20,376 nt of DNA from a virus, in IMG/VR virus record IMGVR_UViG_3300009495_000996, positions 1-20,376 of that record; one strand, given 5' to 3'. The first letter of the stretch is position 1; every line of letters starts with the position of its first letter. Of the stretch, positions 3,784 through 19,937 are shown piece after piece. Made by a program: the position numbers and the translations under genes. A model generated the notes under the pieces. It was given only the letters and a program-made list of their open reading frames with translations. It was not told the DNA's origin and made no database searches.

Positions 3784-3808
3784 CAAAGTATGTTGAGTGT
3801 AGTATAAT
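3780..3808 (+). promoter_or_regulatory. Promoter P2, consensus sigma-70 type
   Basis: TTGACA (3780-3785), 17-base spacer, TATAAT (3803-3808), then the same 18-base downstream block as P1 at 3809-3826 without a mismatch. The -35 overlaps the stop codon of the preceding glycosyltransferase. It drives the HAD gene at 3836, and that short unit is closed by the terminator at 4440-4479. Confidence 0.92.
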
Positions 3809-3835
3809 ACTTGTATTGAGAATGAGGAGTAAGAG

Positions 3836-4417: not shown

Positions 4418-4439
4418 TCCCCTCCTATATCCCCCCTAT

Positions 4440-4479
4440 ATACCCTATGTAAACTAATAATTTCATAGGGTATTTTTTT
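4440..4479 (+). terminator. Rho-independent terminator after the HAD gene
   Basis: A ten-base stem, ATACCCTATG (4440-4449) with CATAGGGTAT (4464-4473), a 14-base loop and a TTTTTTT tail (4473-4479). The next gene starts at 4481, so its only ribosome-site-like bases (AGGG, 4467-4470) are inside the stem. Confidence 0.88.
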
Positions 4480-4480
4480 A

Positions 4481-4807
4481 ATGGACGAAGAACTAAAACA
4501 AGCGGGTCATCATCCCGCTGATTCTAATGGAGACGGAAAAGTCTCTGATCAAGAACAAGCAATGTACTTAGAGTTCAAACGCAAAGAACTAGACGATGCA
4601 GACGCTATGCGTGATGCACAACGTAGTATGGCATGGTTTGCATTATGGGGTATGTTGTTATATCCTTTTGCGGTTGTCCTTGCGGTTTGGATTGGACTAG
4701 ATACTGCATCCAAAATTCTGGGTGATATGGCTGCGACATACTTTGTATCAGTTGCCGCTATTGTTGCTGCATTCTTTGGTGGACAAGCATTTACCAATAA
4801 GAAGTAG
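4481..4807 (+). CDS. Small membrane protein with an EF-hand loop (holin candidate)
   Basis: A 108-residue protein in three parts. Residues 14-25 (DSNGDGKVSDQE) form a complete 12-residue EF-hand calcium loop with D14, N16, D18, G19 and E25 in the ligand or structural positions. Next comes a charged helix (LEFKRKELDDADAMRDAQR). Two hydrophobic segments follow, at about residues 51-72 (WFALWGMLLYPFAVVLAVWIGL) and about 82-103. The C-terminus is basic. From memory, similar proteins occur in marine T4-like phages without a known role. Two short membrane spans and proximity to an M15 peptidase make a holin possible, but unproven. Its start lies two bases after a terminator and has no free Shine-Dalgarno sequence. 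Confidence 0.82.
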   Translation: MDEELKQAGHHPADSNGDGKVSDQEQAMYLEFKRKELDDADAMRDAQRSMAWFALWGMLLYPFAVVLAVWIGLDTASKILGDMAATYFVSVAAIVAAFFGGQAFTNKK

Positions 4808-4809
4808 AA

Positions 4810-5616
4810 ATGGAACGAGTCCGATGGCGTGGTACTTGGGGTATGGGAGACTGTATGCTCGCACTCCAAGTATGTCATAATTATTGTTACAAAAACAATA
4901 CCAAAGTCAATTTGGAGATGCACTGGGCGACACCTGAAGGTCACCTAGAGACACCTAAAGACCCTGAGACTATCGTTGAACGCATGGAGTGGATACATAC
5001 AAAGTTCCATCGTCAAGAAGATGTGACCATCACCCACGTGTACAATTCCGATTTATTCCCTAGTAGTAATACTGATAACAGTAAAGATAAGAAACGATAC
5101 TATTTTGATTCTGGTAATCATACTGAAGATCAAAGCGCTCCTCATGGGTGGGTATTTAAGAAAAGTGAATATAAAGATAGAAACTTGGAAGGAAGGAAAA
5201 TTGTTTTCTGGACACCGACATATAATACTGAACCACCAAGAAAATGGAAAAGGTTCTTGACAAATGATGATTGGTGGGGTATAATTAAGCTGTTACGCCG
5301 AGAGGGTTGGATACTACAAGAATTGACGTATCGAACACCTATTAAAGAAGCGTATGAAATAATACAAAATGCAGATTATGTAATATGTTATGATGGTATG
5401 TGGCACTATATTGCTGGTCAGTTAGGAAAACCAATGTTTATACCATCTTGGGAAAACATCACTGGTTACGCTTGTCCTCAAGTAGTATGCAGACCTAATA
5501 AAGAATTAGTTATGAAATTTATAAAAGGGTTTACCGACAAAGGTGGACAGCACATGATAAAAAAAGCAAAGCACTATACAGAGAATAGACTGGGAAGATA
5601 TTTTGAAGATCGATAG
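4810..5616 (+). CDS. GT-B/GT9-like glycosyltransferase-related protein
   Basis: A 268-residue protein starting with MERVRWRGTWGMGDCMLALQ. The G-x-G-D near the N-terminus and ADYVICYDGMWHYIAGQLGKPMFI in the C-terminal half follow the pattern of GT-B enzymes such as the heptosyltransferase (GT9) family, where D-x-x-x-x-H-x-A-x-x-L-G-K-P lies at the nucleotide-sugar site. I remember related proteins from cyanophages that lack a functional name. It starts two bases after the preceding stop and overlaps the radical SAM gene by 14 bases. From about base 5040 onward the codons are clearly more A/T-rich than those of its neighbours. Catalytic activity is an inference. Confidence 0.72.
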   Translation: MERVRWRGTWGMGDCMLALQVCHNYCYKNNTKVNLEMHWATPEGHLETPKDPETIVERMEWIHTKFHRQEDVTITHVYNSDLFPSSNTDNSKDKKRYYFDSGNHTEDQSAPHGWVFKKSEYKDRNLEGRKIVFWTPTYNTEPPRKWKRFLTNDDWWGIIKLLRREGWILQELTYRTPIKEAYEIIQNADYVICYDGMWHYIAGQLGKPMFIPSWENITGYACPQVVCRPNKELVMKFIKGFTDKGGQHMIKKAKHYTENRLGRYFEDR

Positions 5617-6565
5617 AGCAGTAATTGAAATTAATGGTGGTTGTAACTACTCGTGTACTATGTGTCCCCAAGACATGAGAACAGGTGGTCGTGATAAGAA
5701 GTTTCTCAAGAAGATGGGACTAGAAGAGTTCGAGAGAAATGTCGCTGACTGTGCAAAACATGGACTACGAGTTGTTAACCTAGAAGGAAGTGGTGAACCT
5801 ACTCTCAATAGAAACCTACCCGAATACATCAAGATCGTTAAGAAGTATGGAGCAAAGTGTTTCATGTTCTCTAATGGATTCAAGATGCAAGGTCAGTTCA
5901 TGAGAGACTGTGTTGATGCTGGAATGGATTTCTATCGATACTCATTCATTGGATATAATCCTGAGAAGTATGACGAGTGGATGAATAATATTATTGGAGG
6001 AAACTTTAATACTATTGTAAACAACATTCGTGAGATGAAAGAGTATGTTGATCAAACAGGAAGTGACTGTGTGGTCGCAACCTACCACTTGATTACTGAC
6101 AACGACAACCTAAATAATGAGTTGGAAGCATACAAAAAGTTAGTTGACGATCTCGGTGTGAAGACTGAAATTTGGAAGATGCATAACTGGTCTGGTGTCT
6201 ATGATATCGGAGAGAATGAAAGAAAGGGAGAAGTCAAAACTTGTGGAAGACCTTTTAGTCCTGATGTCGTTATTCGTGCTGGTGGTCTTGATGGTAAGTC
6301 TGGTGCAGTTGCACCGTGTTGCCAAGTCCTTGGACAAGACGAAGAAGCTGTTCTCGGACACACCTCAGAAGAGACGATCGAAGAAATCTGGAATGGCGAA
6401 GAATATACTAAACTACGTGATGACCATATTACTGGAAATTACCCTGATTACTGTGCTAGTTGCGACTTTCTTCTCGATGACCCCGAAGTCCTAGTATACA
6501 CTAATCACGAACGTGATCTAATGAAGATGCATGGTACGGAGTTCGATCTGAATGACTACCGATAA
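5603..6565 (+). CDS. Radical SAM enzyme with SPASM-type C-terminal domain
   Basis: A 320-residue enzyme. The radical SAM cluster motif CxxxCxxC is GGCNYSCTMC (C14, C18, C21). EGSGEP (61-66) is the SAM-binding GGEP-type motif. C214, the adjacent pair C239/C240 (VAPCC) and C284-x-x-C287 form a C-terminal cysteine set of SPASM type that would hold an extra iron-sulfur cluster. SPASM enzymes modify peptides, sugars or cofactors. In this setting a sugar or a glycan precursor is a reasonable guess but not shown. The TTG at 5603 is the only start that keeps the cluster motif with a normal N-terminus; it has GGAAG just upstream and overlaps the previous gene. Confidence 0.92.
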   Translation: MKIDRAVIEINGGCNYSCTMCPQDMRTGGRDKKFLKKMGLEEFERNVADCAKHGLRVVNLEGSGEPTLNRNLPEYIKIVKKYGAKCFMFSNGFKMQGQFMRDCVDAGMDFYRYSFIGYNPEKYDEWMNNIIGGNFNTIVNNIREMKEYVDQTGSDCVVATYHLITDNDNLNNELEAYKKLVDDLGVKTEIWKMHNWSGVYDIGENERKGEVKTCGRPFSPDVVIRAGGLDGKSGAVAPCCQVLGQDEEAVLGHTSEETIEEIWNGEEYTKLRDDHITGNYPDYCASCDFLLDDPEVLVYTNHERDLMKMHGTEFDLNDYR

Positions 6566-7367
6566 ACCACCAGTAATCATAATACGTACCAAAGACGACC
6601 CCATATCCGAGAAACTTGCGAAGAAGACAAGAGAATCTTGGGAGAAGTGTGGTTATGTAACAGAGTTCTTTGATGCTATTAAACCCGATGAGTTAGATCA
6701 GTATAATTATATAGATTTCGGTAATGAGATATTACCACACAAAAACAGATATCGAAATACAAAGATTAAGAAACTGGGGTTGGTAATTAAACACCCATAT
6801 GAACCTGCTGTGTCCGCTTCTGGTGTGAAATATTCTAGGGTTATATCACCCACCGCTAAATGTATTTACTATTCTCATATAGAAGTTTGGAAACTTGTCT
6901 CCAAAAGAAATACACCACACCTAGTGGTAGAACATGATATGGTATTGAGACATGAACTACCTAAGAATCTATTCAAACGTTTCCATTTTTATCAACTAGG
7001 TGATGGCGTGTGTCATTGTAGTTATATCACACCACTTATAATAAACAAGTTGTTGGAACGTGTTGAAAAATACACTCCAACAGAATCGGTTGCGTTAAGC
7101 GACACAATAGTTCAACGTGGATTACTTAATATTGATGGATTTCTGTGGAGACTCCTAACAAATATTGTATACACAGATCAAAGTCTACAAAATAAAATGT
7201 ATTTTTTTATGGGAAGTGTCGCACCAAGACTAGATCATATAACAGATTATAACCAGTGTCTATATACTGATATATACGGAAAAATGATAAGAGACATATC
7301 AAAAACAAAGGATGGTAGGGATATTGTTTATGAAACAGTAGCTCATGAAATTTTAATAGTGGATTAA
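6552..7367 (+). CDS. GT25-like glycosyltransferase (A/T-rich gene)
   Basis: A 271-residue protein resembling glycosyltransferase family 25 (LPS-type galactosyl/glucosyltransferases). TAKCIYYSHIEVWKLV (101-116) matches the family's acLSHi-x-vW stretch, and LVVEHDMVLR contains E127-H128-D129 where the family normally has E-D-D as metal site. No membrane segment is seen. It overlaps the radical SAM gene by 14 bases. The gene is visibly more A/T-rich than its neighbours (runs such as TATTTTTTTATG near 7199), which hints at a different origin. Sugar specificity is unknown. Confidence 0.75.
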   Translation: MTTDKPPVIIIRTKDDPISEKLAKKTRESWEKCGYVTEFFDAIKPDELDQYNYIDFGNEILPHKNRYRNTKIKKLGLVIKHPYEPAVSASGVKYSRVISPTAKCIYYSHIEVWKLVSKRNTPHLVVEHDMVLRHELPKNLFKRFHFYQLGDGVCHCSYITPLIINKLLERVEKYTPTESVALSDTIVQRGLLNIDGFLWRLLTNIVYTDQSLQNKMYFFMGSVAPRLDHITDYNQCLYTDIYGKMIRDISKTKDGRDIVYETVAHEILIVD

Positions 7368-7370
7368 ATT

Positions 7371-8180
7371 ATGAAAAGATTGATATTCCAAGTATCGGTG
7401 GGCAAACCATCGAAGTTGTATGAACACTGTATAAAGAGTGTTGAATCCTATTGTGAACGACATGGTATTGACCATATTGTTCTAACCCAACCTAAACTAC
7501 GAATCCGACCCGACATATTCTCTAGTGGTAGAAGTGAAGAGTCATACATGAAGTATGGCGGATATCTTCCTATCTACGAGAAAGAGAATGCATTTGAATA
7601 TCTGGACGACTATGATCAGATTGCAATTGTTGATGCAGACATCTTCATTCGTCCAGGCAGTCCCAATATCTTTGATGACTTTGATTGCAAGTGTCAATGC
7701 TATCTTGATTGCAAGTGTGCGTTTGGTGCTGTTTCGGAACGTGAGATGGATATCCAACCTTGGTATCAGAACAAGATAAAGAACTATTCACATATGCAGT
7801 ATGCACAGTTGCACAATCGTGGATTAGACTTCAAACCCAACAATCTAGGTTATGAGTTCTTCAACATGGGAATGATTCTCTTGAACTCAAAACAATTCAA
7901 ACCCTATCTACAGGGACAAGACCCTCACAGTTTTATAAATCGCATGGAGTTCAAAGACTTTGTTGATGGCGTGGGTGCGTACAAGTGGAGTACTGACCAG
8001 ACCCTTCTGAACTACTTCCTGAAGAAGTACAAGATACCTACTCGTCACATGGGTGGTGAGTGGAATGGACTATATGGTGCGGTGGACAATATCAAAGAGT
8101 GTCACTTCGTTCACTTCTTCCTGAAGGACAAACTTCCTAATGGTGGGGAGAATGTCGAGGAATTAATGAAGACGATATGA
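7371..8180 (+). CDS. GT-A-fold glycosyltransferase with an inserted cysteine cluster
   Basis: A 269-residue GT8-like protein. The DxD motif is IAIVDADIF (D88, D90), followed by FFNMGMILLN (about 163-172) and WSTDQTLLN (about 206-214), the same three landmarks as in the gene at 2953. MGGEWNGLYG and HFVHFFLKDK near the end complete a GT8-type C-terminus. Residues 106-116 contain five cysteines (CKCQCYLDCKC) encoded by a 14-base direct repeat, which is not a usual part of this fold. It starts three bases after the preceding stop and overlaps the next gene by four (ATGA). Confidence 0.85.
   Translation: MKRLIFQVSVGKPSKLYEHCIKSVESYCERHGIDHIVLTQPKLRIRPDIFSSGRSEESYMKYGGYLPIYEKENAFEYLDDYDQIAIVDADIFIRPGSPNIFDDFDCKCQCYLDCKCAFGAVSEREMDIQPWYQNKIKNYSHMQYAQLHNRGLDFKPNNLGYEFFNMGMILLNSKQFKPYLQGQDPHSFINRMEFKDFVDGVGAYKWSTDQTLLNYFLKKYKIPTRHMGGEWNGLYGAVDNIKECHFVHFFLKDKLPNGGENVEELMKTI
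7681..7718 (+). repeat. Direct repeat of 14 bases coding a Cys-Lys-Cys pair
   Basis: TTGATTGCAAGTGT occurs at 7681-7694 and again at 7705-7718, a 24-base period (eight codons) in frame, so the protein repeats L/F-D-C-K-C. The identical copies suggest a recent slippage duplication inside the glycosyltransferase gene. Confidence 0.85.
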
Positions 8181-8572
8181 GTAAAAAACCCGACAATGTA
8201 GTTGATGCGCCCGCACTGTTGCCGTATCCAACCAATGTCGGTGCGCCTGCCTTTACTGTACCAGATGTTCTAGGTATAAGTAAAGAACGAGGCATCACTG
8301 CAACACATCAACTTGAAACAAAGTTTGATGCATTGAAAGAGGAGTATTTCAAATTGGTAAAACTTGCCGAAGACACTTCATTGATGTATACTGCAAGATG
8401 CATGATAACGCCTGTGGTTGGTGAAGTCTATCACTTATACAATAGTAAGGATGGTCACTTCATCAGTATGATTGAACCAGAGAAATGGAAATCTCAAGAA
8501 CATCTCGGTAGTTTCAAACTAACTTCCGAACAGACTTGGGAACAAATAGAAGAGACATATTATGAAACCTAA
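8177..8572 (+). CDS. DUF2452-like protein
   Basis: A 131-residue soluble protein. NVGAPAFTVPDV near the N-terminus, a helical middle and MITPVVGEVYHLYNSKDGHFISMIEPEKW toward the end fit the pattern I remember for DUF2452 (a family that also includes human C1orf50). A VGExYxLY stretch followed by a hydrophobic I-x-P-x-x-W strand is characteristic. The biochemical role is unknown. It overlaps the GT before it by four bases and the sulfotransferase after it by 11, so it is an integral part of the glycan operon. The family assignment is from memory and unverified. Confidence 0.78.
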   Translation: MSKKPDNVVDAPALLPYPTNVGAPAFTVPDVLGISKERGITATHQLETKFDALKEEYFKLVKLAEDTSLMYTARCMITPVVGEVYHLYNSKDGHFISMIEPEKWKSQEHLGSFKLTSEQTWEQIEETYYET

Positions 8573-9263
8573 AATGTTTGTACACATTCCCAAGAATGGT
8601 GGGATGACAATACGTAAAGATAACGAAATTCGTAAACAGGTTATTCTGGGTGTTCCAGCTAATCTGAAGAGTGGAGAGTATTCTCGTGGTGTTAAGGAGA
8701 AGATGGACGAGAACAAAGACCATGAGGGTTACGAACACGCACGATGGAGAGACTGGAGACAGGATATCAAAGACCAACTACAGGGTGTTGCGATTGTTCG
8801 TAATCCTTGGGATAGAGTTATGTCTCGTTATGTCTTTGCGAAGAAAGTGATACAACATGAGGGGACACAACCGAGTGGTTATGCGGACATTTCATCCTTC
8901 GAGGCATTCCTAGAGGAACGTCATAAGTGGGGTGGAGAAGAGTATATGTGGCATCGTGCAATTCGTGGATGGTATCCCGCATTCGACCATGTGAGTGACG
9001 AGGAAGGTAATAACCGATGTGACATCTTGCGGTTTGAGAACTACAACGAGGATACAAAACTTTACTTTGGACTGTTACATAACCCCAACCCTCGTAATAT
9101 AACTCGTGTTCAGGGTAAACCTAAGACTAGTTATGGTGTTAATTATAAGGATATATACACTGACAAGACAATACAAATAATCGCTGATTGGTATAAGAAA
9201 GACATAGACTATTGGGGATTTGATTTTGATACTGGCGCAACAAGGAACTACTGGAATGCTTAA
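8562..9263 (+). CDS. PAPS-dependent sulfotransferase-like protein
   Basis: A 233-residue protein of the sulfotransferase fold. FVHIPKNGGMTI at residues 6-17 is the 5'-phosphosulfate loop (usually hIPKTGGTS). VAIVRNPWDRVMSRY (76-90) is the 3'-phosphate-binding motif with R80 and S88, as in Sulfotransfer_2-type carbohydrate sulfotransferases. It lacks the membrane anchor of eukaryotic Golgi enzymes. The expected reaction is transfer of sulfate from PAPS to a sugar hydroxyl. Its position among glycosyltransferases supports a carbohydrate acceptor. It ends overlapping the methyltransferase start (ATGCTTAA). Confidence 0.88.
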   Translation: MKPKMFVHIPKNGGMTIRKDNEIRKQVILGVPANLKSGEYSRGVKEKMDENKDHEGYEHARWRDWRQDIKDQLQGVAIVRNPWDRVMSRYVFAKKVIQHEGTQPSGYADISSFEAFLEERHKWGGEEYMWHRAIRGWYPAFDHVSDEEGNNRCDILRFENYNEDTKLYFGLLHNPNPRNITRVQGKPKTSYGVNYKDIYTDKTIQIIADWYKKDIDYWGFDFDTGATRNYWNA

Positions 9264-9873
9264 AGACTTATTTGACAAATATAAATGTGACAAAGGTACA
9301 TCGAAACACCATTACTATAAGGTATATGAACAATACTTTGAAGATGTGAGAGAAGAACCTCTAAACTTTCTTGAGATAGGAACTTTCAAGGGTGCATCAA
9401 CTCGTGCGTTTTATGATTACTTTCCCAATGCGAACATCTATACCATCGACATATTTGTGAGAACTGACCCAAAGGATTTGGACATCTTACATAAAGACCG
9501 AGTACACTGGATGAAAGCGGACTCTATGAGTGCGACTCTTCCTCAAAAGATTAAAAATGAATGGGGTGATGTTGAGTTTGATTTTGTGATTGATGATGGT
9601 GGTCATTGGCCAGAAGTGAATCGACTGACTTTCGAAAACATTATACCTTTTGTTAAGGATAATGGTGTATACTTTATCGAAGACCTGTGGCCCATGCATA
9701 TCATGAACGAGAGCCAACTGAATAATCCTTGGTTGCAAGGTAGACCAGAGAAGTATGATATGTTGAAACACAATCGTCTGATGTCCACCTTGGACTCATA
9801 CGAAAAGGTACTGCACGACCAAAGGAAAGAAACTAAACAGGGAGACACCTGTATTATGGCGGTGACCAAATGA
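9256..9873 (+). CDS. SAM-dependent methyltransferase, MycE/TylF-like
   Basis: A 205-residue class I methyltransferase. Motif I is NFLEIGTFKGAST (37-49), followed by the acidic strand end IYTIDIF (61-67). VEFDFVIDDGGHWPE (106-120) contains the D-D-G-x-H signature of sugar O-methyltransferases of the MycE/TylF/macrocin type, in which the acidic residues bind a metal. The ATG at 9256 is preferred to an upstream in-frame ATG at 9220, which lies inside the sulfotransferase gene, because AAGGA (9242-9246) is nine bases before it and the protein then starts directly with its conserved MLKDLFDKYKCDKG helix. A sugar O-methylation role fits the neighbours. Confidence 0.86.
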   Translation: MLKDLFDKYKCDKGTSKHHYYKVYEQYFEDVREEPLNFLEIGTFKGASTRAFYDYFPNANIYTIDIFVRTDPKDLDILHKDRVHWMKADSMSATLPQKIKNEWGDVEFDFVIDDGGHWPEVNRLTFENIIPFVKDNGVYFIEDLWPMHIMNESQLNNPWLQGRPEKYDMLKHNRLMSTLDSYEKVLHDQRKETKQGDTCIMAVTK

Positions 9874-10508
9874 TTAAACTAATAATGTTCGGTCTAGATG
9901 GTGTCCTTCTAGACTACGAAAAGGTTCTTAAAGAGTCGTTTAACGAAACGTTGAAGAAGTATGGATATCCCACACTCACTGATTCGAAACGATACTACTT
10001 CGACAATTTACCGATCGAAGGTCAGTTACAGATTCTTAATGTAGACCCCGAAGAGATTCCGAAGATGAAGATTTGGCATGATTCTCTGGTGTTAACAAGA
10101 ATGAAGACGATTGAAAAAGATCACGAACTCATTAAGGTGTTCCGTTCTTTGCAAGAGGAAGGGTACAAAGTCGCAGTGTGTTCTAATGCGATGGCTAGAA
10201 CTGTACATCCTATAATTACTGAGTTGGGACTTACCGAGTATATTGATATGATACGAACAGTAGATGACGTGAGTAATCCCAAACCCCATCCCGAAATGTG
10301 GTGGGACGTGATGTCTGACTTGGGAGTTTTTCCTGAAGACTGTATTATTATAGAAAATAGTAAGAGAGGTTTGGATTCAGCATATCACTCTGGTGTGCCT
10401 GTGAAACAGGTTCAGTCAGTATACTCTCCCGAAGATATACCAAGATTAATTCATTTGTGGGTCAACCCAGAGGCAAAAGCATATCGTAATGAAGTCCTTC
10501 GTAATTAG
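9870..10508 (+). CDS. HAD-like protein lacking the motif I nucleophile
   Basis: A 212-residue protein of the beta-phosphoglucomutase/phosphatase HAD subclass with an alpha-helical cap. Motif II is VAVCSNAM (S105), motif III is NPKPHPEMW (K138) and motif IV is CIIIENSKRGLDSA (E162, N163 where the family has E-D). Motif I reads MFGLDGVLLD instead of FDLDGV: the first aspartate, the phospho-accepting nucleophile, is Gly8 (codon GGT, one base from GAT), while D10 is kept. The protein may be a non-catalytic binding or scaffold relative, or the change may be a mutation or base error. It overlaps the methyltransferase by four bases and the next GT by 20. Confidence 0.88.
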   Translation: MIKLIMFGLDGVLLDYEKVLKESFNETLKKYGYPTLTDSKRYYFDNLPIEGQLQILNVDPEEIPKMKIWHDSLVLTRMKTIEKDHELIKVFRSLQEEGYKVAVCSNAMARTVHPIITELGLTEYIDMIRTVDDVSNPKPHPEMWWDVMSDLGVFPEDCIIIENSKRGLDSAYHSGVPVKQVQSVYSPEDIPRLIHLWVNPEAKAYRNEVLRN

Positions 10509-11202
10509 TCTGGTCAATAACCAAGAGTCCACTGTTGCGACCCGAAGACTTGTTGAATCTATTCAGTCCACAGGTTCCAAACTAGACCCTATCGTTCTAC
10601 CCGCCACGACACCCAGTACTATTACACACGGAATCAAGAGTCTGGGAATGTCTGGTGTTGAGTGGACATACCCGATGGATGTTCATGAAGATGGTCTTGA
10701 TTTGAAAACAGGATTACGTCTGACCCACTACGAGACTGCGAACCATTCCAATCGTGTTGCGTGTATGGTATCTCATATGCGATGTTGGAAGAAGGCAATC
10801 GATCTTAATGAGACTATTGTAGTCCTAGAACACGATGCATTATTTGTTAAAAAATTCAAACCGAAAGACTTGACAGATCAATGGAAGGGTGGTATAATAG
10901 GACTAAACGACCCCAGAGGTGCAACCCGAAGGTCTGGTATGTTCCATGAGAAAGTATCATCATTTATTGGAGTACAACCAGTACCCACGATAGATGACAT
11001 GGATGTACCTCAAGGTCTGGCAGGAAACTCTGCATATATGATCTCACCCAAGGGTGCTAAGAAACTACTAGATAAGGTAAGAGAAGTGGGAATGTGGCCT
11101 AACGATGCGTTGATGAACAAACAGTTCTTCCCTTGGTTAGAAGTCGTTTACCCATATTACACTACAATACAACGAGGGTTGAAGTCAACCACTACACAAT
11201 GA
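10489..11202 (+). CDS. GT25-like glycosyltransferase, first of a tandem pair
   Basis: A 237-residue protein with the family 25 layout: MKSFVISLVNN at the N-terminus, RVACMVSHMRCWKKAI (89-104) matching the LSH-x-x-xW stretch, and VVLEHDALFV with E114-H115-D116 at the metal site. GLAGNSAYMISPKGAKKLLD corresponds to the family's G-x-x-gY-x-is--gA--ll segment. The C-terminal FFPWLEVVYPYYTTIQ is shared with the next gene, so the two look like diverged duplicates. The gene is inside the operon, overlapping the HAD gene by 20 bases and the next GT by four. Confidence 0.85.
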   Translation: MKSFVISLVNNQESTVATRRLVESIQSTGSKLDPIVLPATTPSTITHGIKSLGMSGVEWTYPMDVHEDGLDLKTGLRLTHYETANHSNRVACMVSHMRCWKKAIDLNETIVVLEHDALFVKKFKPKDLTDQWKGGIIGLNDPRGATRRSGMFHEKVSSFIGVQPVPTIDDMDVPQGLAGNSAYMISPKGAKKLLDKVREVGMWPNDALMNKQFFPWLEVVYPYYTTIQRGLKSTTTQ

Positions 11203-11846
11203 AAGCATTTGTAATTACAATAACTGACAACGATAGATCGGTCGAGTCTGCCAATAAGTGTATTGAATCTGGTAAACGTCACGGACAGAAGATCGAGAAG
11301 TTTAAGGCGATCACTCCCGCAGACAATCCTGTAGAACTGTTACAGTCAAAAGGTATTGACCCTGTAAAGTTTGATGAGAAGTATTCTCGTAATCTGAATT
11401 GTATCTCTGCATTCCTATCCCACCATGCATTGTGGGAAGAGTGTTCGAAGGGTTACGAGAACTTTGTTATCTTTGAACATGATGCGATCATGATAGACAG
11501 TATTCCTCCCGCACATCCTAGATACGTAATGAACCTCGGACACCCATCCTATGGTAATTGGAATACTCCACAGATGTTGGGTATCAATCCACTGACCACT
11601 AAGAGATACTTTCCAGGCGCTCATGCGTATATGGTGACTCCTGCTGGTGCAAAACTCTTGGTAGAGAATGCGACCCTGTATGCAAAACCAACTGATGTGT
11701 ATCTGAATACCACAACGTTCCCTTGGTTACAAGAGTGGTATCCCTTTGTCGCAGAAGCGAGAGATACCTTTACAACGATTCAAGTAGAAGCGGGATGTCA
11801 AGCAAAACATAATTGGAAAGAAGGGTATGAAATCATCGATGCATAA
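11199..11846 (+). CDS. GT25-like glycosyltransferase, second of a tandem pair
   Basis: A 215-residue protein, MKAFVITITDND at the start, NCISAFLSHHALWEEC (67-82), and FVIFEHDAIMID with E93-H94-D95. FPGAHAYMVTPAGAKLLVE and TTFPWLQEWYPFV parallel the previous gene. The ATG at 11199 is chosen over an in-frame ATG at 11133 because it forms the operon's usual ATGA overlap and aligns with the N-terminus of its paralogue; the upstream extension lies inside the preceding gene. No separate Shine-Dalgarno is evident, consistent with coupled translation. The sugar transferred is unknown. Confidence 0.85.
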   Translation: MKAFVITITDNDRSVESANKCIESGKRHGQKIEKFKAITPADNPVELLQSKGIDPVKFDEKYSRNLNCISAFLSHHALWEECSKGYENFVIFEHDAIMIDSIPPAHPRYVMNLGHPSYGNWNTPQMLGINPLTTKRYFPGAHAYMVTPAGAKLLVENATLYAKPTDVYLNTTTFPWLQEWYPFVAEARDTFTTIQVEAGCQAKHNWKEGYEIIDA

Positions 11847-12498
11847 TGTATTTTTGACAGGGTGTGATAAACATACCGAATGGCAACTCCCTTGGTTTAT
11901 CGAGAACTATCGCAAACACAATACGAAACCTATTGTACTTGCAGACTTTGGTATGGATATTCGTACACGAAAAAGGATGGAATCTCAGTTTGACTTGGTG
12001 ATTGATGTCAAGAGTGAAGCAAAGGGATGGTTCAAGAAACCTCGTGCGATACTGGATGCCACCAAACTAGATGGTGTGAAGAAAGTCTGTTGGATTGATA
12101 CTGATTGTGAAATCAAAGGCAACATCGATGATGTGTTCAACTTTACTGTTCAGGGTAAACTGTCTATGGTAGAAGATAGACCTTGGACTATGAGAAGACC
12201 TGACATGGGTAGGTGGCATAACTCTGGGGTTGTTGCGGTAGAAGGTACACCAAACATTCTACGTGCATGGGCAGACGAGTGTATTTGTAATCCTGTACAG
12301 GGAGATCAAGAGACTCTGTATCTGATGATGAATGGTGATGAGATATACAAGATGACGTGTATCGAATCTATGCCACACACATATAACACTTTAAGGTTAG
12401 ACTACATAGATGGTATAAACGTGAAGAATCCCAAGATTATCCACCATACTGGTAAGAAAGGGAAAGAATTAATTAAAGAACAAATGGGAAAAATATAA
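11827..12498 (+). CDS. GT-A-fold glycosyltransferase, GT8/capsular-sugar type
   Basis: A 223-residue protein. The DxD site is VCWIDTDCEI (D91, D93). RWHNSGVVAVEG (about 129-140) is the N-x-G-V motif and QGDQETLYLMM (about 157-167) the DQ motif, with HHTGKKGK near the end as an H-x-G ligand. The start is uncertain: ATG 11827 has GGAAAG six bases upstream, while an in-frame ATG at 11839 would give MHNVFLTG, a more natural beginning, with an eight-base overlap. It overlaps the preceding GT25 gene and its stop overlaps the nuclease start (TAATG). Confidence 0.82.
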   Translation: MKSSMHNVFLTGCDKHTEWQLPWFIENYRKHNTKPIVLADFGMDIRTRKRMESQFDLVIDVKSEAKGWFKKPRAILDATKLDGVKKVCWIDTDCEIKGNIDDVFNFTVQGKLSMVEDRPWTMRRPDMGRWHNSGVVAVEGTPNILRAWADECICNPVQGDQETLYLMMNGDEIYKMTCIESMPHTYNTLRLDYIDGINVKNPKIIHHTGKKGKELIKEQMGKI

Positions 12499-12905
12499 TG
12501 TATGAATACAGAACAAAAGTGGTACGTGTCGTTGATGGTGATACCGTTGACGTTGACATCGATTTGGGGTTTGGTGTTTGGCTTCGAAAAGAGAGAGTCC
12601 GACTATATGGTGTGGACACCCCCGAATCACGAACTCGTGATCTCGAAGAAAAGAAATATGGACTTGCCGCAAAAGACTTTCTCGTAGAGAAGTTAGGTGA
12701 TAGTCCTGTTCTGAAAACAACAAAGGATGGCAAGGGTAAGTTTGGTCGTATCCTCGGTGAGTTCCTTGTTGATGATGGTGAAGGTACAGTCCGAAGTGTT
12801 AATGATTGGTTAATCAGTGAACACCATGCGGTAGAGTATATGGGTCAATCGAAAGATGCGATTGCGGAACAACATTTAGTGAATAGAGAATTGGTTAAAC
12901 TATGA
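12498..12905 (+). CDS. Staphylococcal-nuclease-like (thermonuclease) protein
   Basis: A 135-residue SNase-fold protein. VVDGDTVDV carries D13 and D15. RVRLYGVDTPESRT supplies R35, D40 and E43, at exactly the residue numbers of the staphylococcal enzyme. GKFGRILGEF supplies R84 in place of R87. All calcium-binding and catalytic positions are therefore present and the enzyme should hydrolyse DNA or RNA. There is no signal peptide, so it acts in the infected cell (host DNA or RNA breakdown) unless released at lysis. Related small nucleases occur in marine T4-like phages. It is coupled to the preceding GT (TAATG) and overlaps the next gene by four bases. Confidence 0.92.
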   Translation: MYEYRTKVVRVVDGDTVDVDIDLGFGVWLRKERVRLYGVDTPESRTRDLEEKKYGLAAKDFLVEKLGDSPVLKTTKDGKGKFGRILGEFLVDDGEGTVRSVNDWLISEHHAVEYMGQSKDAIAEQHLVNRELVKL

Positions 12906-13156
12906 AAGTATTACACAACAACGTCCTAGTGACACAAGCGGAAGCCGAGACAACTACCTCTGGTGGTATTATTCTACAGAACGATATCTCATCTGGTAAT
13001 AAACCCGCAGTCATTATTGCCTTTGGTGATGATGTACAAGGTCTTCAACAGGAAAACAAAGTGTTTCTTGACTGGAGTAAGTCTATGCCTGTGGAGATAG
13101 ATGGGTTGAAGTGTGCGGTAATTGATTTTAGTCATATTAAATTAATTATAGAGTAG
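12902..13156 (+). CDS. GroES-like co-chaperonin (gp31-type role inferred)
   Basis: An 84-residue beta-rich protein with the cpn10 pattern. VLHNNVLVTQAEAETTTSGGIIL matches the GroES start (PLxDRVxVxxxEaExxTxGGIxL), including the mobile-loop flank TTTSGGI that contacts GroEL. AVIIAFGDDVQGL, KVFLDWSKSMPVEIDGLKCAVIDFSHI and a terminal IIE follow the remaining strands. It is slightly shorter than GroES (about 97 residues). In T4, gp31 replaces GroES to fold the major capsid protein; a similar job here is inference. The ATG overlaps the nuclease stop. Confidence 0.8.
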   Translation: MKVLHNNVLVTQAEAETTTSGGIILQNDISSGNKPAVIIAFGDDVQGLQQENKVFLDWSKSMPVEIDGLKCAVIDFSHIKLIIE

Positions 13157-13161
13157 TACAC

Positions 13162-13797
13162 ATGAACAAGTACAGAGTAAATGTTCTAGGTAATGGTGAC
13201 AATGCGGGTATGTTCGAAAGAGGAACGCCTGGCAAACTATTAGTTTGTAATATGCCACCATTCGAGATTCCACGGAAGGAAGTGTGGGCGACCTGTATGG
13301 TTGACTTCAAGATGATGAAGGCACTTCAAGAAGGTCATATCAAGTTAGATATGTATGACTGGGTTCTTGGTACTAGACCACGATTGTGGATGGAACAGTC
13401 TGGAACATTCTATATGAAGTACTCACACTTGATTAAGGGTTTCTATCAACACGTACCTGAGTATGCAAATGTCACAGGTGACCCTCGTATGGCTGCGACC
13501 AACTTCAACTGTGGTCACATGGCAGTACACTATGCGTGTGCGAAGATGAAGGCAACCGAAGTTCACCTTTATGGTTTTGATACTATCTTTGATATGAACG
13601 CAGAAAGTTTCACTGATCTTTTGTTAGAGAGTGATCGTGGTACTGGTAATACTGTAAGACTAATAGATAACTGGAGACCCATCTGGACTAATATGTTCAA
13701 AGAGTTTCCTAATGTGACATTCCACTTGTATCATAGTCATGACAAGATTAAGATACCTGTCGGAGACAATGTGAAGATTCATACCAAGGGGCGATGA
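13162..13797 (+). CDS. Rossmann-like protein, possibly DUF115/GT42-like
   Basis: A 211-residue protein starting with MNKYRVNVLGNGDNAGMF, a glycine-rich nucleotide-binding-like beta-turn. NFNCGHMAVHYACAKMKATEVHLYGFD (residues about 114-140) resembles the G-x-x-Al-yA---g--eI-L-GfD stretch of DUF115/MptE-like proteins and GT42 sialyltransferases such as Cst-I. That would fit a glycan operon, but the likeness is limited to this segment and I do not claim the activity. No membrane span. It starts five bases after the GroES-like gene with only a weak ribosome site. AAGGGG near its end (13786-13791) serves the next small ORF. Confidence 0.65.
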   Translation: MNKYRVNVLGNGDNAGMFERGTPGKLLVCNMPPFEIPRKEVWATCMVDFKMMKALQEGHIKLDMYDWVLGTRPRLWMEQSGTFYMKYSHLIKGFYQHVPEYANVTGDPRMAATNFNCGHMAVHYACAKMKATEVHLYGFDTIFDMNAESFTDLLLESDRGTGNTVRLIDNWRPIWTNMFKEFPNVTFHLYHSHDKIKIPVGDNVKIHTKGR

Positions 13798-13957
13798 ATG
13801 AAAGATAGAGAATCTTAAAGAGTTTTTGTCACGAACATATCGTGAGATGGTAGAAGGGAAGACTGAAAAGAAAAAGGGGTTAGATGATACTAACCCCCTA
13901 TTACTAAGGATTCAAACACTTGAGAAAAAAGTGAGAGAGTTGGAGAAGAAGAGTTAA
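13798..13957 (+). pseudogene. Small coiled-coil ORF with an apparent +1 frame break
   Basis: ATG 13798 follows the previous stop directly and has AAGGGG six bases upstream, an ideal start, but its frame ends after six codons (MKDRES). A second frame is open from 13802 to TAA 13957. It reads KIENLKEFLSRTYREM, then a basic stretch, and ends RIQTLEKKVRELEKKS, a clear leucine-heptad coiled coil. Removing one base near 13804 joins the ATG to it as a 52-residue protein starting MKIENLKEF. This could be a real frameshift mutation, a base-call error, a programmed shift, or a shorter gene starting at TTG 13826 or ATG 13847. The leftward terminator lies inside it. Confidence 0.6.
13866..13897 (-). terminator. 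Rho-independent terminator of the leftward operon
   Basis: Read on the minus strand, GGGGTTAG (13897-13890), loop TATCAT, CTAACCCC (13883-13876), then TTTTTCTTTT (13875-13866). The eight-base GC-rich stem followed by the T-tract is a strong terminator about 57 bases beyond the stop at 13954. On the plus strand the hairpin has no T-tail, so it should only stop leftward transcription. Confidence 0.9.
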
Positions 13958-14634
13958 GTTCTCTTTTTCTTGTCTCGTTCCTTTCTAATCCATAGTTTTG
14001 CTTTGGCATTCTCTGGTGATTTGTCCAAGAACTTCTTGACATCTTTGTATGCACGAAGTGTCTCTTTCTGGTAGTCCTTACCATCTGAGTTATCAACGAT
14101 TAACATATTGGGTTTACCAAAGAAAGTCTGGAATGCACCGATATTTCTCTGTACAGTCTTCCAGTAGTTAGTAACTTCCTTTTCACCGATAGTACGGTCA
14201 CGTGCTTTGTCACGTGCGATTGCGGTATCAAGGTCGGTGTTTACAAATATCATTGCAATATCATAACCCAATGCTTTCATCGCCTGTGCTTGTTTCTTGA
14301 CTTTTTCGAAGTCTTTACCAGTTCCATCAACCACAACACCGAGTCTACCCATAAGGTATCGTGCCTGTTTCTTACCAGTAAGTGCCTTTGCACGACCACG
14401 AATCTCTTGACCTTTTACTGAGAAGATGTTATCCGAAGACATTTCCATTCCTGCCTTCTTCATTGCAGCTTCATATGCATCGTCAGAGTTTATAACCTTG
14501 AGTCCAAGGGCGGGAAGACCAGTCTTACCCACGATAAAGGATTTACCAGACCCAGGCCCACCAGCGAGGAAGACTGCCTTAAAGATTGCGGGGTCATCGA
14601 CACCCTCGGTCATGAATTTCTTAAATTTGATCAT
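13954..14634 (-). CDS. P-loop kinase, zeta-toxin-like, with possible capsid-targeting N-terminus
   Basis: A 226-residue protein. Walker A is GGPGSGKS (25-32), followed by KVINSDDAYE and an arginine-rich lid (AIARDKARDRTIG), the layout of zeta-toxin/AAA_33-type small-molecule kinases. Proteins annotated as zeta toxin with this core occur in T4-like phages. Residues 1-11, MIKFKKFMTEG, resemble the T4 capsid-targeting sequence of internal proteins (MKTYQEFIAE, cleaved before A), with a hydrophobic-x-E site for the prohead protease after E10. The C-terminus is very basic. It is the last gene of the late operon; its start overlaps the stop of the 275-residue gene. The kinase fold is firm, packaging is inference. 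Confidence 0.85.
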   Translation of the reverse strand: MIKFKKFMTEGVDDPAIFKAVFLAGGPGSGKSFIVGKTGLPALGLKVINSDDAYEAAMKKAGMEMSSDNIFSVKGQEIRGRAKALTGKKQARYLMGRLGVVVDGTGKDFEKVKKQAQAMKALGYDIAMIFVNTDLDTAIARDKARDRTIGEKEVTNYWKTVQRNIGAFQTFFGKPNMLIVDNSDGKDYQKETLRAYKDVKKFLDKSPENAKAKLWIRKERDKKKRT

Positions 14635-15461
14635 TACTTGAATACCTTGTAAAAAGTTTCTAATTGTTCTATATTGTGGTTGAATCTAAAATGTGTTAGA
14701 AGTCTCCGGCGGTCATACGATGGATGACGTTTGTAACCTCTAAGTGCCTCTGGTAATTTGTGTGTACTAGTATAGATTGTTCCCCACATACCACTAGTGT
14801 TTGCAAACTTGATAAATCTTCGTTTGAAATTAGAGAGGTCTCGTGTCTTTCCTTTTATAATTCTTGTTTTCTTACTATTTTTACGACACACATCGATCAT
14901 GTCAAAACTGGGTGTGCAAACTGTTTTGAATTTTTCCTTTATATCATTAGATTGGAATGTGCCTTTTTTTATAGAATGTCGATTACCCATGAGTACAATC
15001 GCATCAAACTTTCCGTGAATATTACAGTCTATATCCTGTATTGTTCTATCTAAAGAAAACCAGTTTTTCACAGGTATAGTATTCACACCGAACTCTTTCC
15101 ATGCACCCTCATACAGATGTCCTTCTTCTGCCACAGCGACAGACACCTTTCCTTCCCCTCCACAAAACTGATGAACAATAGGGAATAGTAAGTCACCCGA
15201 ATGGTCTGTCGGTTCGTATTTCCTGTTTCTCAATCGTTCTTCGGTAATAGGTGTAGGCAATACCAGAATGTTTTTATAACCACCCATAGAGATCATGGAG
15301 GAAATTAACGATGCATCATTCAACAATGTTGATATGTCGGCCAATTTATTATCACAATGACAGATGGTGTTAGTCAATCTTTCTATCACAGAAAGTCTAG
15401 ATGTGTGAGTTACAAAAGATGCCGTGCTAAGAGATGTTGGTTGGGTATCAAACAAAATCAT
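14634..15461 (-). CDS. Unidentified 275-residue protein of the late leftward operon
   Basis: A 275-residue soluble protein that I cannot assign. The middle has alternating strands and helices: GGYKNILVLPTP at about 60, KVSVAVAEEGHLYEGAWKEFGV, and KFDAIVLMGNRHSIKKG. This is the order of a Rossmann-type fold and faintly recalls a degenerate class I methyltransferase, but the glycine-rich SAM loop is missing. The C-terminal third is strongly basic (KNSKKTRIIKGKTRDLSNFKRRF and GYKRHPSYDRRRLL), which could bind nucleic acid. It starts directly after the 89-residue gene and ends overlapping the kinase start (TAATG), so it should be made late. Confidence 0.8.
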   Translation of the reverse strand: MILFDTQPTSLSTASFVTHTSRLSVIERLTNTICHCDNKLADISTLLNDASLISSMISMGGYKNILVLPTPITEERLRNRKYEPTDHSGDLLFPIVHQFCGGEGKVSVAVAEEGHLYEGAWKEFGVNTIPVKNWFSLDRTIQDIDCNIHGKFDAIVLMGNRHSIKKGTFQSNDIKEKFKTVCTPSFDMIDVCRKNSKKTRIIKGKTRDLSNFKRRFIKFANTSGMWGTIYTSTHKLPEALRGYKRHPSYDRRRLLTHFRFNHNIEQLETFYKVFK

Positions 15462-15731
15462 TTACTTGGTTCCCGAATAAATCGTTTGAATGTGCGTTTC
15501 AAATTGTTCAATCTTATCTGTACGATTGGGCCACAGAATGTATTCTTTCTCTGGGTTCGCCTTGAGATTGTTCAACAATGGTTGAATCGCATTGAATAGT
15601 TTATCTAGTTTGTCTTGGGTTTCTGATACCGATGATGATGCAGACGTTACTGATTCTTGTGCCTTCTGCACAACCTCCAGTTCGTTCTCGTCTACTAAAG
15701 TAAACCCGAAATCAAATAGTTCGTTTGACAT
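15462..15731 (-). CDS. Conserved phage coiled-coil protein, first gene of the late operon
   Basis: An 89-residue acidic protein. MSNELFDFGFTLVDE leads into a long helix with a Ser/Ala-rich middle (about residues 22-50, predicted coiled coil) and then KANPEKEYILWPNRTDKIEQFETHI. I remember the NPEKxYIxWPNR signature from small proteins of marine T4-like phages, function unknown. AGGAG lies about eight bases before the ATG, and the late promoter box is about 20 bases upstream, so it is expected to be a late product, perhaps a virion or assembly component. It abuts the next gene exactly. Confidence 0.88.
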   Translation of the reverse strand: MSNELFDFGFTLVDENELEVVQKAQESVTSASSSVSETQDKLDKLFNAIQPLLNNLKANPEKEYILWPNRTDKIEQFETHIQTIYSGTK

Positions 15732-15750: not shown

Positions 15751-15758
15751 TATTTATA
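15751..15758 (-). promoter_or_regulatory. T4-type late promoter box
   Basis: On the minus strand the bases read TATAAATA, identical to the T4 late promoter -10 element recognised by gp55 with gp33 and the sliding clamp. No sigma-70 -35 lies at the right distance. The expected RNA start leaves a leader of about 15 bases with AGGAG before ATG 15731. I found no other exact copy next to a gene in the window. Confidence 0.85.
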
Positions 15759-15779
15759 CAACTTTTATTCTTAAAACAC

Positions 15780-15808
15780 TTGACAAACGATGTTCAATTG
15801 TGTATTAT
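15780..15808 (+). promoter_or_regulatory. Promoter P4, sigma-70 type
   Basis: TTGACA (15780-15785), 17-base spacer, TATTAT (15803-15808, one mismatch from TATAAT). A perfect TATAAT at 15812-15817 is too far away (26 bases) to pair with this -35. It drives the gene at 15840, back-to-back with the leftward late promoter. The 18-base block seen after P1-P3 is absent here. Confidence 0.82.
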
Positions 15809-15839
15809 ATGTATAATAGTTAAAGAATAGGAGAGGATT

Positions 15840-16133
15840 ATGCAATCATTTAATGGGTCAATGCGGTATGATGTACATGGGCGCAAACGTAAGACCAATG
15901 CGTGGAGTAAGACCAAGAAGTACAGACCAGAGTTCAAACCTCTAGAATCGGTTTCTGTACACCGTGACACCCATCGTGAGAAGTATCCATCGGTAAGTGA
16001 TATGGGATATGTACAGTCCGAGGACACATCATACAAACTAGAGGAATCCAAAAAGTTTACGGTAGCACCTGCCTTTAATAAAGGTGCATATCAAGTAATA
16101 CCCCAATCTGATGTAAAACATATAGGAAAGTAG
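15840..16133 (+). CDS. Conserved basic phage protein, function unknown
   Basis: A 97-residue basic protein starting MQSFNGSMRYDVHGRKRKTNAW. The MRYDVxGRKRKT start is one I remember from small proteins of cyanophage-type T4-like viruses. It is rich in Lys, Arg, Tyr and Pro, with little predicted regular structure, which is compatible with nucleic-acid binding but proves nothing. The ATG has AGGAGAGG about five bases upstream and is the first gene after P4, so early expression is likely. It is separated by one base from the next ORF. Confidence 0.82.
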   Translation: MQSFNGSMRYDVHGRKRKTNAWSKTKKYRPEFKPLESVSVHRDTHREKYPSVSDMGYVQSEDTSYKLEESKKFTVAPAFNKGAYQVIPQSDVKHIGK

Positions 16134-18966: not shown

Positions 18967-19013
18967 GAATACTCATAATACAACTAATACGCAAAAATAC
19001 GGAGAATACAAAT

Positions 19014-19937
19014 ATGTCTTTTGCAAACCTTAAATCTAATTCCCTAGATGTTTCTAAACTCGCACAAGCGGCACAGACTGCATCAGGGGTAACTCAATCT
19101 AAAAACAAATACGAAGACCTCCGATTCTGGAAACCTACTGTTGATGACAATGGTAATGGTTTTGCACAGATTCGATTTCTTCCTGCCGCAGAAGGTCAAG
19201 AACTACCTTGGGTACGTTACTTCGATCATTTCTTCAAAGGCCCAACTGGACAATGGTATGTTGAGAAGTCTCTGACTACTCTAGGTAACAATGACCCAGT
19301 GAGTGAATACAACTCTCGTTTGTGGAACTCTGGTATCGATGAAGATAAAGAGACTGCACGTAAACAGAAACGTAGACTTCACTATGTTGCGAACGTTATG
19401 GTAGTGAGTGACCCATCTAATCCTGCTAACGAAGGTAAAGTATTCCTTTACGACTTCGGTAAGAAAATCTTTGATAAGATTATGGATGTGATGCAACCTC
19501 AATTCCCAGGCGAAACACCTGTAAACCCATTCGACTTTTGGACTGGTGCAGATTTCCAGTTGAAGATTCGTAATGTTGCGGGATATCGTAACTATGATAA
19601 GTCAGAGTTCAAATCATCGACATCACTGTTTGATGCGGATGAGACTAAACTAGAGTCAACTTACAATCAGTTGCACGATGTTTCTGAGTTCGTTGCAGAG
19701 TCTTCATACAAATCATATGATGACTTGAAGTCACGACTTGAAGTGGTACTGGGTCAAGCGACTGGTGCGGGTGCGACTGTAAAGAATGATTCTCTGAGTC
19801 AAACTGCTGAGTCTGCTCCAATTCGATCTGCGGAACCTACTGTAGTTTCTCAGTCTGCTCCTGAACCTGTTATTGCAGAGTCGGGTAGTGAAGATGACAC
19901 ATTGTCATACTTTGCGAAACTTGCTGCGGAAGACTAA
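19014..19937 (+). CDS. 32: gp32-like single-stranded DNA-binding protein
   Basis: A 307-residue protein matching T4 gp32 in length and plan: an N-terminal B-type region for self-cooperativity (MSFANLKSNSLDVSKLAQ), a core OB-fold (about 35-230) with RFWKPTVDDNGNGFAQIRFLP and GKVFLYDFGKKIFDKI, and an acidic C-tail ending EDDTLSYFAKLAAED that in T4 recruits replication proteins. The zinc ligands of T4 (H64, C77, C87, C90) are mostly absent: H72 remains, but the cysteine positions are near S86, D94 and S97 (NDPVSEYN). It coats ssDNA during replication and recombination. It has its own promoter P5 and a strong terminator. Confidence 0.95.
   Translation: MSFANLKSNSLDVSKLAQAAQTASGVTQSKNKYEDLRFWKPTVDDNGNGFAQIRFLPAAEGQELPWVRYFDHFFKGPTGQWYVEKSLTTLGNNDPVSEYNSRLWNSGIDEDKETARKQKRRLHYVANVMVVSDPSNPANEGKVFLYDFGKKIFDKIMDVMQPQFPGETPVNPFDFWTGADFQLKIRNVAGYRNYDKSEFKSSTSLFDADETKLESTYNQLHDVSEFVAESSYKSYDDLKSRLEVVLGQATGAGATVKNDSLSQTAESAPIRSAEPTVVSQSAPEPVIAESGSEDDTLSYFAKLAAED

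What the first reader, a model, noticed from the sequence alone, without database searches (positions are those of the whole stretch)
14602..14634. Kinase/toxin-like enzyme with a capsid-targeting-like N-terminus
MIKFKKFMTE|G resembles the T4 internal-protein targeting signal MKTYQEFIAE|A, where the prohead protease cuts after a hydrophobic-x-E. Attached to a P-loop zeta-toxin-like kinase in a late operon, this suggests the enzyme is packed in the head, trimmed at E10 and injected at the next infection.
Basis: partly seen in the sequence, partly recalled or inferred. Interest (0 to 1): 0.75.

Follow-up and report, generated by a model that had tools for sequence, protein, structure and literature searches.

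The report
Phage kinase with a head-packaging tag
A marine T4-like phage makes a small kinase whose first ten residues look like the T4 address label that sends proteins into the phage head, and published virion data from related phages show that other enzymes with the same label do end up in the virus particle, so this kinase is probably carried in the head and delivered to the next host cell.

Summary
The kinase at 13954-14634(-) begins MIKFKKFMTE|G and matches the T4 IPIII capsid-targeting sequence (MKTYQEFIAE|A) at all four positions shown by mutation to matter: aromatic at 4 and 7, aliphatic at 8, Glu at 10. It is not chance. In 52 distinct junctions from homologues the motif [LIMFV]-x-E|G is invariant while the peptide before it varies. 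AlphaFold is confident only from residue 11 on. The operon starts 27 nt after the window's only T4-type late promoter. Unrelated enzymes in related phages (DUF6267, a cytidylyltransferase, an adenylate-kinase-like protein) carry the same tag. Most tellingly, in the published S-CREM2, S-SZBM1 and S-SCSM1 virion proteomes the detected auxiliary enzymes (SAM lyase, APH-like kinase, Cas9-like nuclease, cytidylyltransferases/NMNAT) carry this tag. The Atu_ph07 homologue is fused to an ART-like domain with a similar tag, inside a virion-protein gene cluster. Packaging and trimming are therefore likely (about 0.8), but not shown for this protein. The 'zeta toxin' label is weak: the fold is closest to tRNA and polynucleotide kinases. 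This is a new cargo for a known T4 mechanism.

The parts
13954..14634 (-). P-loop kinase gene, 226 aa (stop codon included)
14605..14634 (-). N-terminal capsid-targeting-like peptide MIKFKKFMTE (residues 1-10), the only stretch of the model with pLDDT under 50
14602..14607 (-). predicted prohead-protease bond E10|G11 (P3 Met, P1 Glu, P1' Gly)
   Evidence: P1 Glu 52/52, P3 hydrophobic 52/52; gp21 motif L/I-x-E (PMC9026906)
14539..14562 (-). Walker A GGPGSGKS (residues 25-32), start of the conserved catalytic core
   Evidence: invariant or nearly invariant in 30 homologues
14482..14484 (-). Asp51, invariant, inferred general base by analogy with PNK/zeta kinases
   Evidence: role is inference
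14634..15461 (-). upstream gene of the same operon, 275 aa, no known family; its end overlaps the kinase start
15462..15731 (-). first gene of the operon, 89 aa, coiled-coil-like, no known family
15751..15758 (-). T4-type late promoter TATAAATA, the only one in the window, 27 nt before the first gene of the kinase operon
   Evidence: seen 34-44 nt before the kinase itself in several homologous loci

Best explanation
The first ten residues are a capsid-targeting sequence of the T4 IPIII type. Late in infection (late promoter: shown as sequence) the kinase is made, and the aromatic residues F4 and F7 dock it into the prohead core with gp22 (inferred from T4). The gp21-type prohead protease then cuts after E10 within F-M-T-E|G and leaves a folded kinase starting at Gly11 inside the head (inferred; the fold boundary is predicted). 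At the next infection it enters the cell with the DNA (inferred from T4 IPs and Alt) and acts before phage genes are expressed. The enzyme is a PNK/PSTK/zeta-superfamily P-loop kinase, so its substrate is most likely an RNA (tRNA or RNA 5' end) or a nucleotide-type small molecule. It belongs to a set of tagged enzymes in these phages: a KWDG nucleotidyltransferase-like protein DUF6267, cytidylyltransferase/NMNAT, an adenylate-kinase-like protein and ATP-grasp.
For: Match at the four experimentally mapped CTS positions. Junction [LIMFV]-x-E|G invariant over 52 distinct junctions although spacing and residues before it change, e.g. MLKFSNFIQQLDE|G, MQTFKDYMEFAE|G, MKVNSFIQHLSE|G. AF2: only residues 1-10 are under pLDDT 50. 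Late promoter in the window and directly before the kinase in 7 of 27 independent homologous upstream regions versus 32/735 other genes, p=2e-4. The same tag on unrelated families, e.g. DUF6267 MKFNDFITE|QKNTH against an untagged cyanophage version MAKNTH. The same kind of site in the major capsid protein: T4 gp23 AFGSFLTE|A and GFMTE|N in the 149-kb relative G001, the same FMTE as the kinase tag. G001 has the gp21/gp22/gp23 cluster with another tagged small protein, MKSYKEILQELSE|A. Published virion proteomes: the regex fixed hits 3/3 in S-CREM2, 1/3 in S-SZBM1 and 2/5 in S-SCSM1, stratified p=0.005. Six auxiliary enzymes detected there (SAM lyase, APH kinase, Cas9-like, two cytidylyltransferases, NMNAT) carry a tag at or near the start. 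The Atu_ph07 kinase homologue is fused behind an ART-like domain with N-terminus MKWNDLNE|A, in a run of paralogues M[KR]W..L[TN]E, inside virion cluster CDS 31-76.
Against: No proteomics was found for this phage or any close relative. Invariance of E10-G11 could partly reflect the fold: the same EGVND motif is internal in Atu_ph07. In the HTVC008M clade the tag is shortened (MIPFILKE|G), which breaks the 4/7 spacing. Some cleanly tagged small proteins in S-SZBM1 (_191, _192) and S-SCSM1 (gp030) were not reported in virions. Cyanophage virion preparations may hold contaminants, as their authors say. Part of the proteomics significance rests on one phage (S-CREM2), and the looser regex was tuned afterwards.
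Confidence: 0.8

Rival explanations
1. The N-terminus is simply the first, variable helix of an ordinary cytoplasmic kinase; E-G-V-x-D-P is part of the kinase domain and any likeness to a capsid-targeting sequence is convergence of a short amphipathic peptide.
For: E10, G11 and D14 are as invariant as catalytic residues and the stretch EGVND-IFKAIF recurs internally in the 778-aa Atu_ph07 protein. AF2 draws a helix at 4-11. In single genomes the regex is only about threefold enriched.
Against: P3 is also always hydrophobic while P2 is free, which is the protease motif and not a usual fold constraint. A distant P-loop relative (L186) has no EG before its strand. Unrelated enzymes carry the same tag, and auxiliary enzymes found in virions carry it.
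Confidence: 0.12
2. The kinase is a zeta-type toxin of a toxin-antitoxin or abortive module acting inside the producing cell, with no role in the virion.
For: Pfam Zeta_toxin 35.2 bits against a cut-off of 22.3; PezT and zeta appear among Foldseek matches, and zeta is the top (weak) PDB sequence match.
Against: AAA_33 scores higher. The best structural matches are PSTK (Z 14.5) and polynucleotide kinase (Z 13.7); zeta-type chains rank lower in Foldseek. No antitoxin-like neighbour was recognised; late promoter. A shared fold does not exclude a toxic activity.
Confidence: 0.05
3. It is packaged, but the tag is a scaffold-binding peptide that stays on (no cleavage), or cleavage occurs but the protein serves head assembly and is not injected.
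For: In T4, CTS targeting and processing are separable: Asp at position 10 blocks processing but still targets (PMC9026906). The HTVC008M cytidyltransferase MKTLKELLRKK and the L174 DUF6267 MFSFKGFITK lack the Glu.
Against: Glu at P1 is never lost in the kinase family. An active-looking enzyme core is an unlikely structural part.
Confidence: 0.15

Closest known systems
T4 internal proteins IPII/IPIII (capsid-targeting sequence MKTYQEFIAE|A)
   Same: 10-residue N-terminal peptide, aromatic at 4 and 7, aliphatic at 8, Glu at 10, small residue after the cut; late-type promoter
   Different: cargo is a P-loop kinase, not a small internal protein; virion presence and cleavage not shown
T4 Alt (head-packaged, injected ADP-ribosyltransferase, N-terminus MELITELFDE|D)
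   Same: an enzyme with an N-terminal propeptide; in Atu_ph07 the kinase homologue is fused behind an ART-like domain
   Different: different enzyme class; the marine kinases stand alone
Virion-associated enzymes of cyanophages S-CREM2, S-SZBM1, S-SCSM1 (cytidylyltransferase/NMNAT, APH-like kinase, SAM lyase)
   Same: same N-terminal tag (MKNFSSFLTEA, MRFRQFIIEA, MKSFLQFLKEA, MKRFDAFLTEE, MKDFDSFLEEF) and reported in virions
   Different: not homologous to this kinase; their authors did not describe a tag in the passages read
Polynucleotide kinase / O-phosphoseryl-tRNA kinase / zeta toxin P-loop kinases
   Same: fold, Walker A and a conserved Asp after strand 2
   Different: about 20% identity; substrate unknown
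Polyvalent or MuF-linked injected effectors (PMC5512222; PMC9503650)
   Same: enzymes predicted to be head-packaged and injected, including ART domains
   Different: those are linked by fusion to structural or multi-domain proteins or by gene context, not by a 10-residue tag

Membership tests
T4-type capsid-targeting-sequence (CTS) internal head proteins | short N-terminal propeptide with targeting residues at positions 4 and 7 | tested here: met
   F4 and F7 in the window protein; aromatic residues kept in most homologues, shortened in the HTVC008M clade
T4-type capsid-targeting-sequence (CTS) internal head proteins | prohead-protease motif L/I-x-E at residues 8-10 | tested here: met
   M-T-E in the window (Met where T4 has Leu or Ile); [LIMFV]-x-E|G in 52/52 distinct junctions; FMTE also precedes the presumed gp23 cleavage site of relative G001
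T4-type capsid-targeting-sequence (CTS) internal head proteins | propeptide removable without breaking the fold | tested here: met
   AF2 residues 1-10 under pLDDT 50, confident fold from residue 11; prediction only
T4-type capsid-targeting-sequence (CTS) internal head proteins | late gene expression | tested here: inconclusive
   TATAAATA 27 nt before the operon and before the kinase in several relatives fits late expression; no expression data
T4-type capsid-targeting-sequence (CTS) internal head proteins | phage encodes a gp21-type protease and gp22/gp23 head | tested here: met
   seen in the 149-kb relative G001, not in the 20-kb window itself
T4-type capsid-targeting-sequence (CTS) internal head proteins | protein present in the mature virion, cut at the motif | not testable with these tools
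   no proteome for this phage; other tagged enzymes are found in published virions
T4-type capsid-targeting-sequence (CTS) internal head proteins | enters the host cell with the DNA | not testable with these tools
   needs infection experiments
Zeta toxin family (UNAG kinase of epsilon/zeta TA systems) | Pfam Zeta_toxin match | tested here: met
   35.2 bits against cut-off 22.3, but AAA_33 scores 39.1
Zeta toxin family (UNAG kinase of epsilon/zeta TA systems) | zeta as closest fold rather than other P-loop kinases | tested here: inconclusive
   PSTK, PNK and NMP kinases rank first; PezT and zeta also match
Zeta toxin family (UNAG kinase of epsilon/zeta TA systems) | cognate antitoxin gene | tested here: inconclusive
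   upstream genes match no known family

The most novel reading that the evidence does not exclude
A ten-residue head-targeting code of the T4 IPIII type works across marine T4-like phages (Kyanoviridae and relatives) and in a different form in jumbo phages. It marks a whole battery of otherwise unrelated enzymes (RNA/nucleotide kinase, KWDG ligase-like DUF6267, NMNAT-like cytidylyltransferase, SAM lyase, protein kinase, ART) for delivery at infection. Injected effectors could then be read directly from genome sequence.
Probability: 0.6. Interest if true: 0.75.

Novelty: new member of a known kind. Interest (0 to 1): 0.62.

Why it matters
Phages of the oceans encode many enzymes of unknown timing. 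If a short N-terminal tag predicts which are carried in the head, the first-minutes effectors of uncultured phages can be listed from metagenomes. It would also explain why cytidylyltransferases, kinases and a SAM lyase keep turning up in cyanophage virions, which their authors could not separate from contamination. The kinase would be a new class of T4-type head cargo.

Tried and rejected
Single-genome regex counts as proof: only about threefold over background in G001 and S-SZBM1, so not relied on alone. Motif allowed up to 16 residues from the start: lost significance in S-CREM2 (p=0.23), so only start-anchored hits are used in the statistics; S-CREM2 gp12 is mentioned separately because its extension is shared with S-CRM01 g128. 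A looser regex (5/6 in S-CREM2, p=0.003) was tuned after seeing the data and is quoted only as such. The stricter CTS regex pooled over three proteomes gives p=0.017. AF2 of DUF6267 gave a poor model (mean pLDDT 54), so no fold search was made and its ligase likeness rests on motifs only. A PDB sequence search with DUF6267 found nothing convincing. Supplementary proteome tables of the papers could not be opened. The whole genome of the window's phage is not held (20-kb record). My first regex missed the HTVC008M and Melnitz kinases because their tags are shortened.

Full report
What is there. The window is a 20,376-base fragment of a T4-like phage (gp32, PhoH, a GroES-like protein and a pyrimidine-dimer glycosylase; G000 is a virus record of just this length). 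Its kinase relatives lie in the Pelagibacter phage HTVC008M, the Methylophilales phages Melnitz and the jumbo phage Atu_ph07, and in about 150 fetched IMG/VR loci. The kinase ORF runs 14634-13954 on the minus strand and begins MIKFKKFMTE|GVDDPAIFKAVFLAGGPGSGKS.

Comparison with the T4 signal. A review of T4 head work (PMC9026906) states that the first ten residues of IPIII suffice for incorporation, that targeting depends mainly on residues 4 and 7 and processing on residues 8 and 10, and that the gp21 protease cuts after L/I-x-E. IPII and IPIII, read from the T4 record, start MKTYQEFIAE|A. The window peptide has F4, F7, M8 and E10. T4's own gp23 carries the same motif at its propeptide end, AFGSFLTE|A. 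The marine relatives have GFMTE|N (G001), AFLSE|A (Melnitz), AFLGE|I (HTVC008M), GLLTE|A (S-CREM2) and GILTE|A (S-SZBM1) at the corresponding place. That these are the gp23 sites is inferred from their position, not measured.

Conservation. Across homologues the peptide before the junction changes in sequence and length (MIKFKKFMTE, MKSFKTFLDE, VLTFEQFLNE, VLRFSKYLEE, MLKFSNFIQQLDE, MQTFKDYMEFAE, MKVNSFIQHLSE, MIKKVKSFMQNISE, MIPFILKE, MKTFAELQE), yet P1 is Glu in 52/52 distinct junctions, P3 is L/M/I/F/V in 52/52, and P2 is free. That is the gp21 specificity. A caution is that E10, G11 and D14 are invariant like catalytic residues, and that the Atu_ph07 homologue has VTE|GVND internally, between an ART-like domain and the kinase. 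This can be read either as part of the fold or as a second cleavage site. L174/L175 show a comparable case: an adenylate-kinase-like domain fused to the kinase with TFKEMKEFIKE|G at the joint.

Fold. AlphaFold2 on 30 homologues gives pLDDT under 50 only for residues 1-10; the confident fold starts at residue 11. The nearest solved structures are O-phosphoseryl-tRNA kinase (Z 14.5, 3.0 A over 170), Clostridium thermocellum polynucleotide kinase (Z 13.7) and NMP kinases, with zeta/PezT also present in the Foldseek list. By sequence AAA_33 (39 bits) beats Zeta_toxin (35 bits). I therefore call it a PNK/PSTK/zeta-superfamily kinase of unknown substrate, not a toxin.

Expression. TATAAATA, the T4 late promoter core, occurs once in the window, on the kinase strand, 27 nt before the first gene of the three-gene operon. 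One exact match in 20 kb is not rare by itself (1.2 expected). In relatives, however, it lies 34-44 nt before the kinase start in 7 of 27 independent upstream regions, against 32 of 735 other genes (p=2e-4).

The tag on other proteins. In the 149-kb relative G001 the same tag is on DUF6267 (MKFNDFITE|QKNTH), on the cytidylyltransferase (VIKDFKSYLVE|E) and on a 73-aa protein inside the prohead gene cluster next to gp21 (MKSYKEILQELSE|A). Among 438 ORF families from related contigs, 7 carry the spaced motif at the start, against 0.9 for shuffled patterns. DUF6267 exists with the tag and, in S-SZBM1 and S-CRM01, without it (MAKNTHLEH.., MAKDGKNVHLEH..), so the tag behaves as a module. DUF6267 has KWDG, EGFVAI and VKLVD motifs that recall covalent nucleotidyltransferases (ligases); this is from memory of the motif set and was not tested by structure (the model was poor).

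Test against experiments. Three cyanophages of family Kyanoviridae have virion proteomes in papers I could read (S-CREM2 PMC10665884, S-SZBM1 PMC9146016, S-SCSM1 PMC9602691 with virion labels in its RefSeq record). With the regex fixed, before any of these data were seen, tagged proteins reported in virions are 3/3, 1/3 and 2/5 against base rates of 49/214, 30/218 and 45/282; the stratified exact p is 0.005. Looked at from the other side, the auxiliary enzymes reported in those virions are tagged: SAM lyase MKDFDSFLEE, APH-like kinase MKRFDAFLTEE, Cas9-like nuclease ..RFASFMAEAA, cytidylyltransferases MKNFSSFLTEA and MRFRQFIIEA, NMNAT MKSFLQFLKEAA. I leave out lysozyme-like proteins, which are probably tail parts, and the RegA-like repressor of S-SCSM1, a possible contaminant. 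The untagged S-SZBM1 DUF6267 protein was not reported. In S-CRM01 the related locus is tagged throughout (MISFDQFLSE, MKKLDQFLTE, MNFSEFLE, MKLFNQFFKE). In Atu_ph07 the kinase homologue is gp053, fused behind an ART-like N-terminal half that begins MKWNDLNE|A, next to a run of paralogues all beginning M[KR]W..L[TN]E. The paper reports CDS 31-76 as a virion-protein cluster with 29 proteins seen by MS. The individual entries are in a supplement I could not open, and I assume that RefSeq and paper numbering agree.

Verdict. Shown: the peptide, its conservation pattern, the predicted fold boundary, the late-promoter core, the tag on unrelated enzymes and the association of the tag with virion presence in relatives. 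Inferred: packaging, cleavage and injection of this kinase, and its substrate. The concept (CTS used by T4-like phages to carry various proteins) is known from Black's work and is stated in the 2022 review. New here, as far as the searches reached, are the kinase as cargo, the spread of the tag through marine T4-like phages, and the match to existing virion proteomes.

Noticed in passing
L140-L185 (e.g. L146:5400-5987): A second P-loop enzyme, adenylate-kinase-like, directly upstream of the kinase carries its own tag MKSFRDFIFE|KLGR; in L174/L175 the two are fused and a tag-like TFKEMKEFIKE|G sits at the joint.
   Followed up: partly
L005:322-9590 (Atu_ph07 gp053-gp061): Nine or more tandem paralogues with YRGM motifs (ART-like by eye, no Pfam hit for the two tested) all begin M[KR]W..L[TN]E, perhaps a jumbo-phage version of the head tag.
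   Followed up: partly
L091:3643-4863 and homologues (DUF6267): DUF6267 has KWDG, EGFVAI and VKLVDR motifs reminiscent of covalent nucleotidyltransferases (ligases); often tagged, untagged in S-SZBM1 and S-CRM01.
   Followed up: partly
L111:7704-10313 (S-CREM2 gp12, annotated Cas9) and L117:14453-15004 (S-CRM01 g128): Both have a shared pre-extension SRWxxWSxG before the tag-like FASFMAE/LDSFIKE; the 'Cas9' has no Pfam match here.
   Followed up: no
L220, T4 18969-19133 (-): T4 encodes a 54-aa ORF starting MKTFKEFIKE|D, a possible unrecognised CTS protein.
   Followed up: no
window 15775-15855 (+): Divergent sigma-70-like promoter (TTGACA .. TATAAT) precedes the plus-strand genes opposite the late-type promoter of the kinase operon.
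   Followed up: no
window 2953-13797 (+): A long run of glycosyltransferase-like, radical-SAM-like and methyltransferase-like genes (by eye), possibly a surface-glycan module.
   Followed up: no
L109 (S-SZBM1 _191 and _192); L215:44215-44535: Small proteins next to virion genes with near-perfect tags (MKSFKSFLSES, MKTFKQYITEA, MKTFKQFMSES) that were not reported in the virion proteomes.
   Followed up: no
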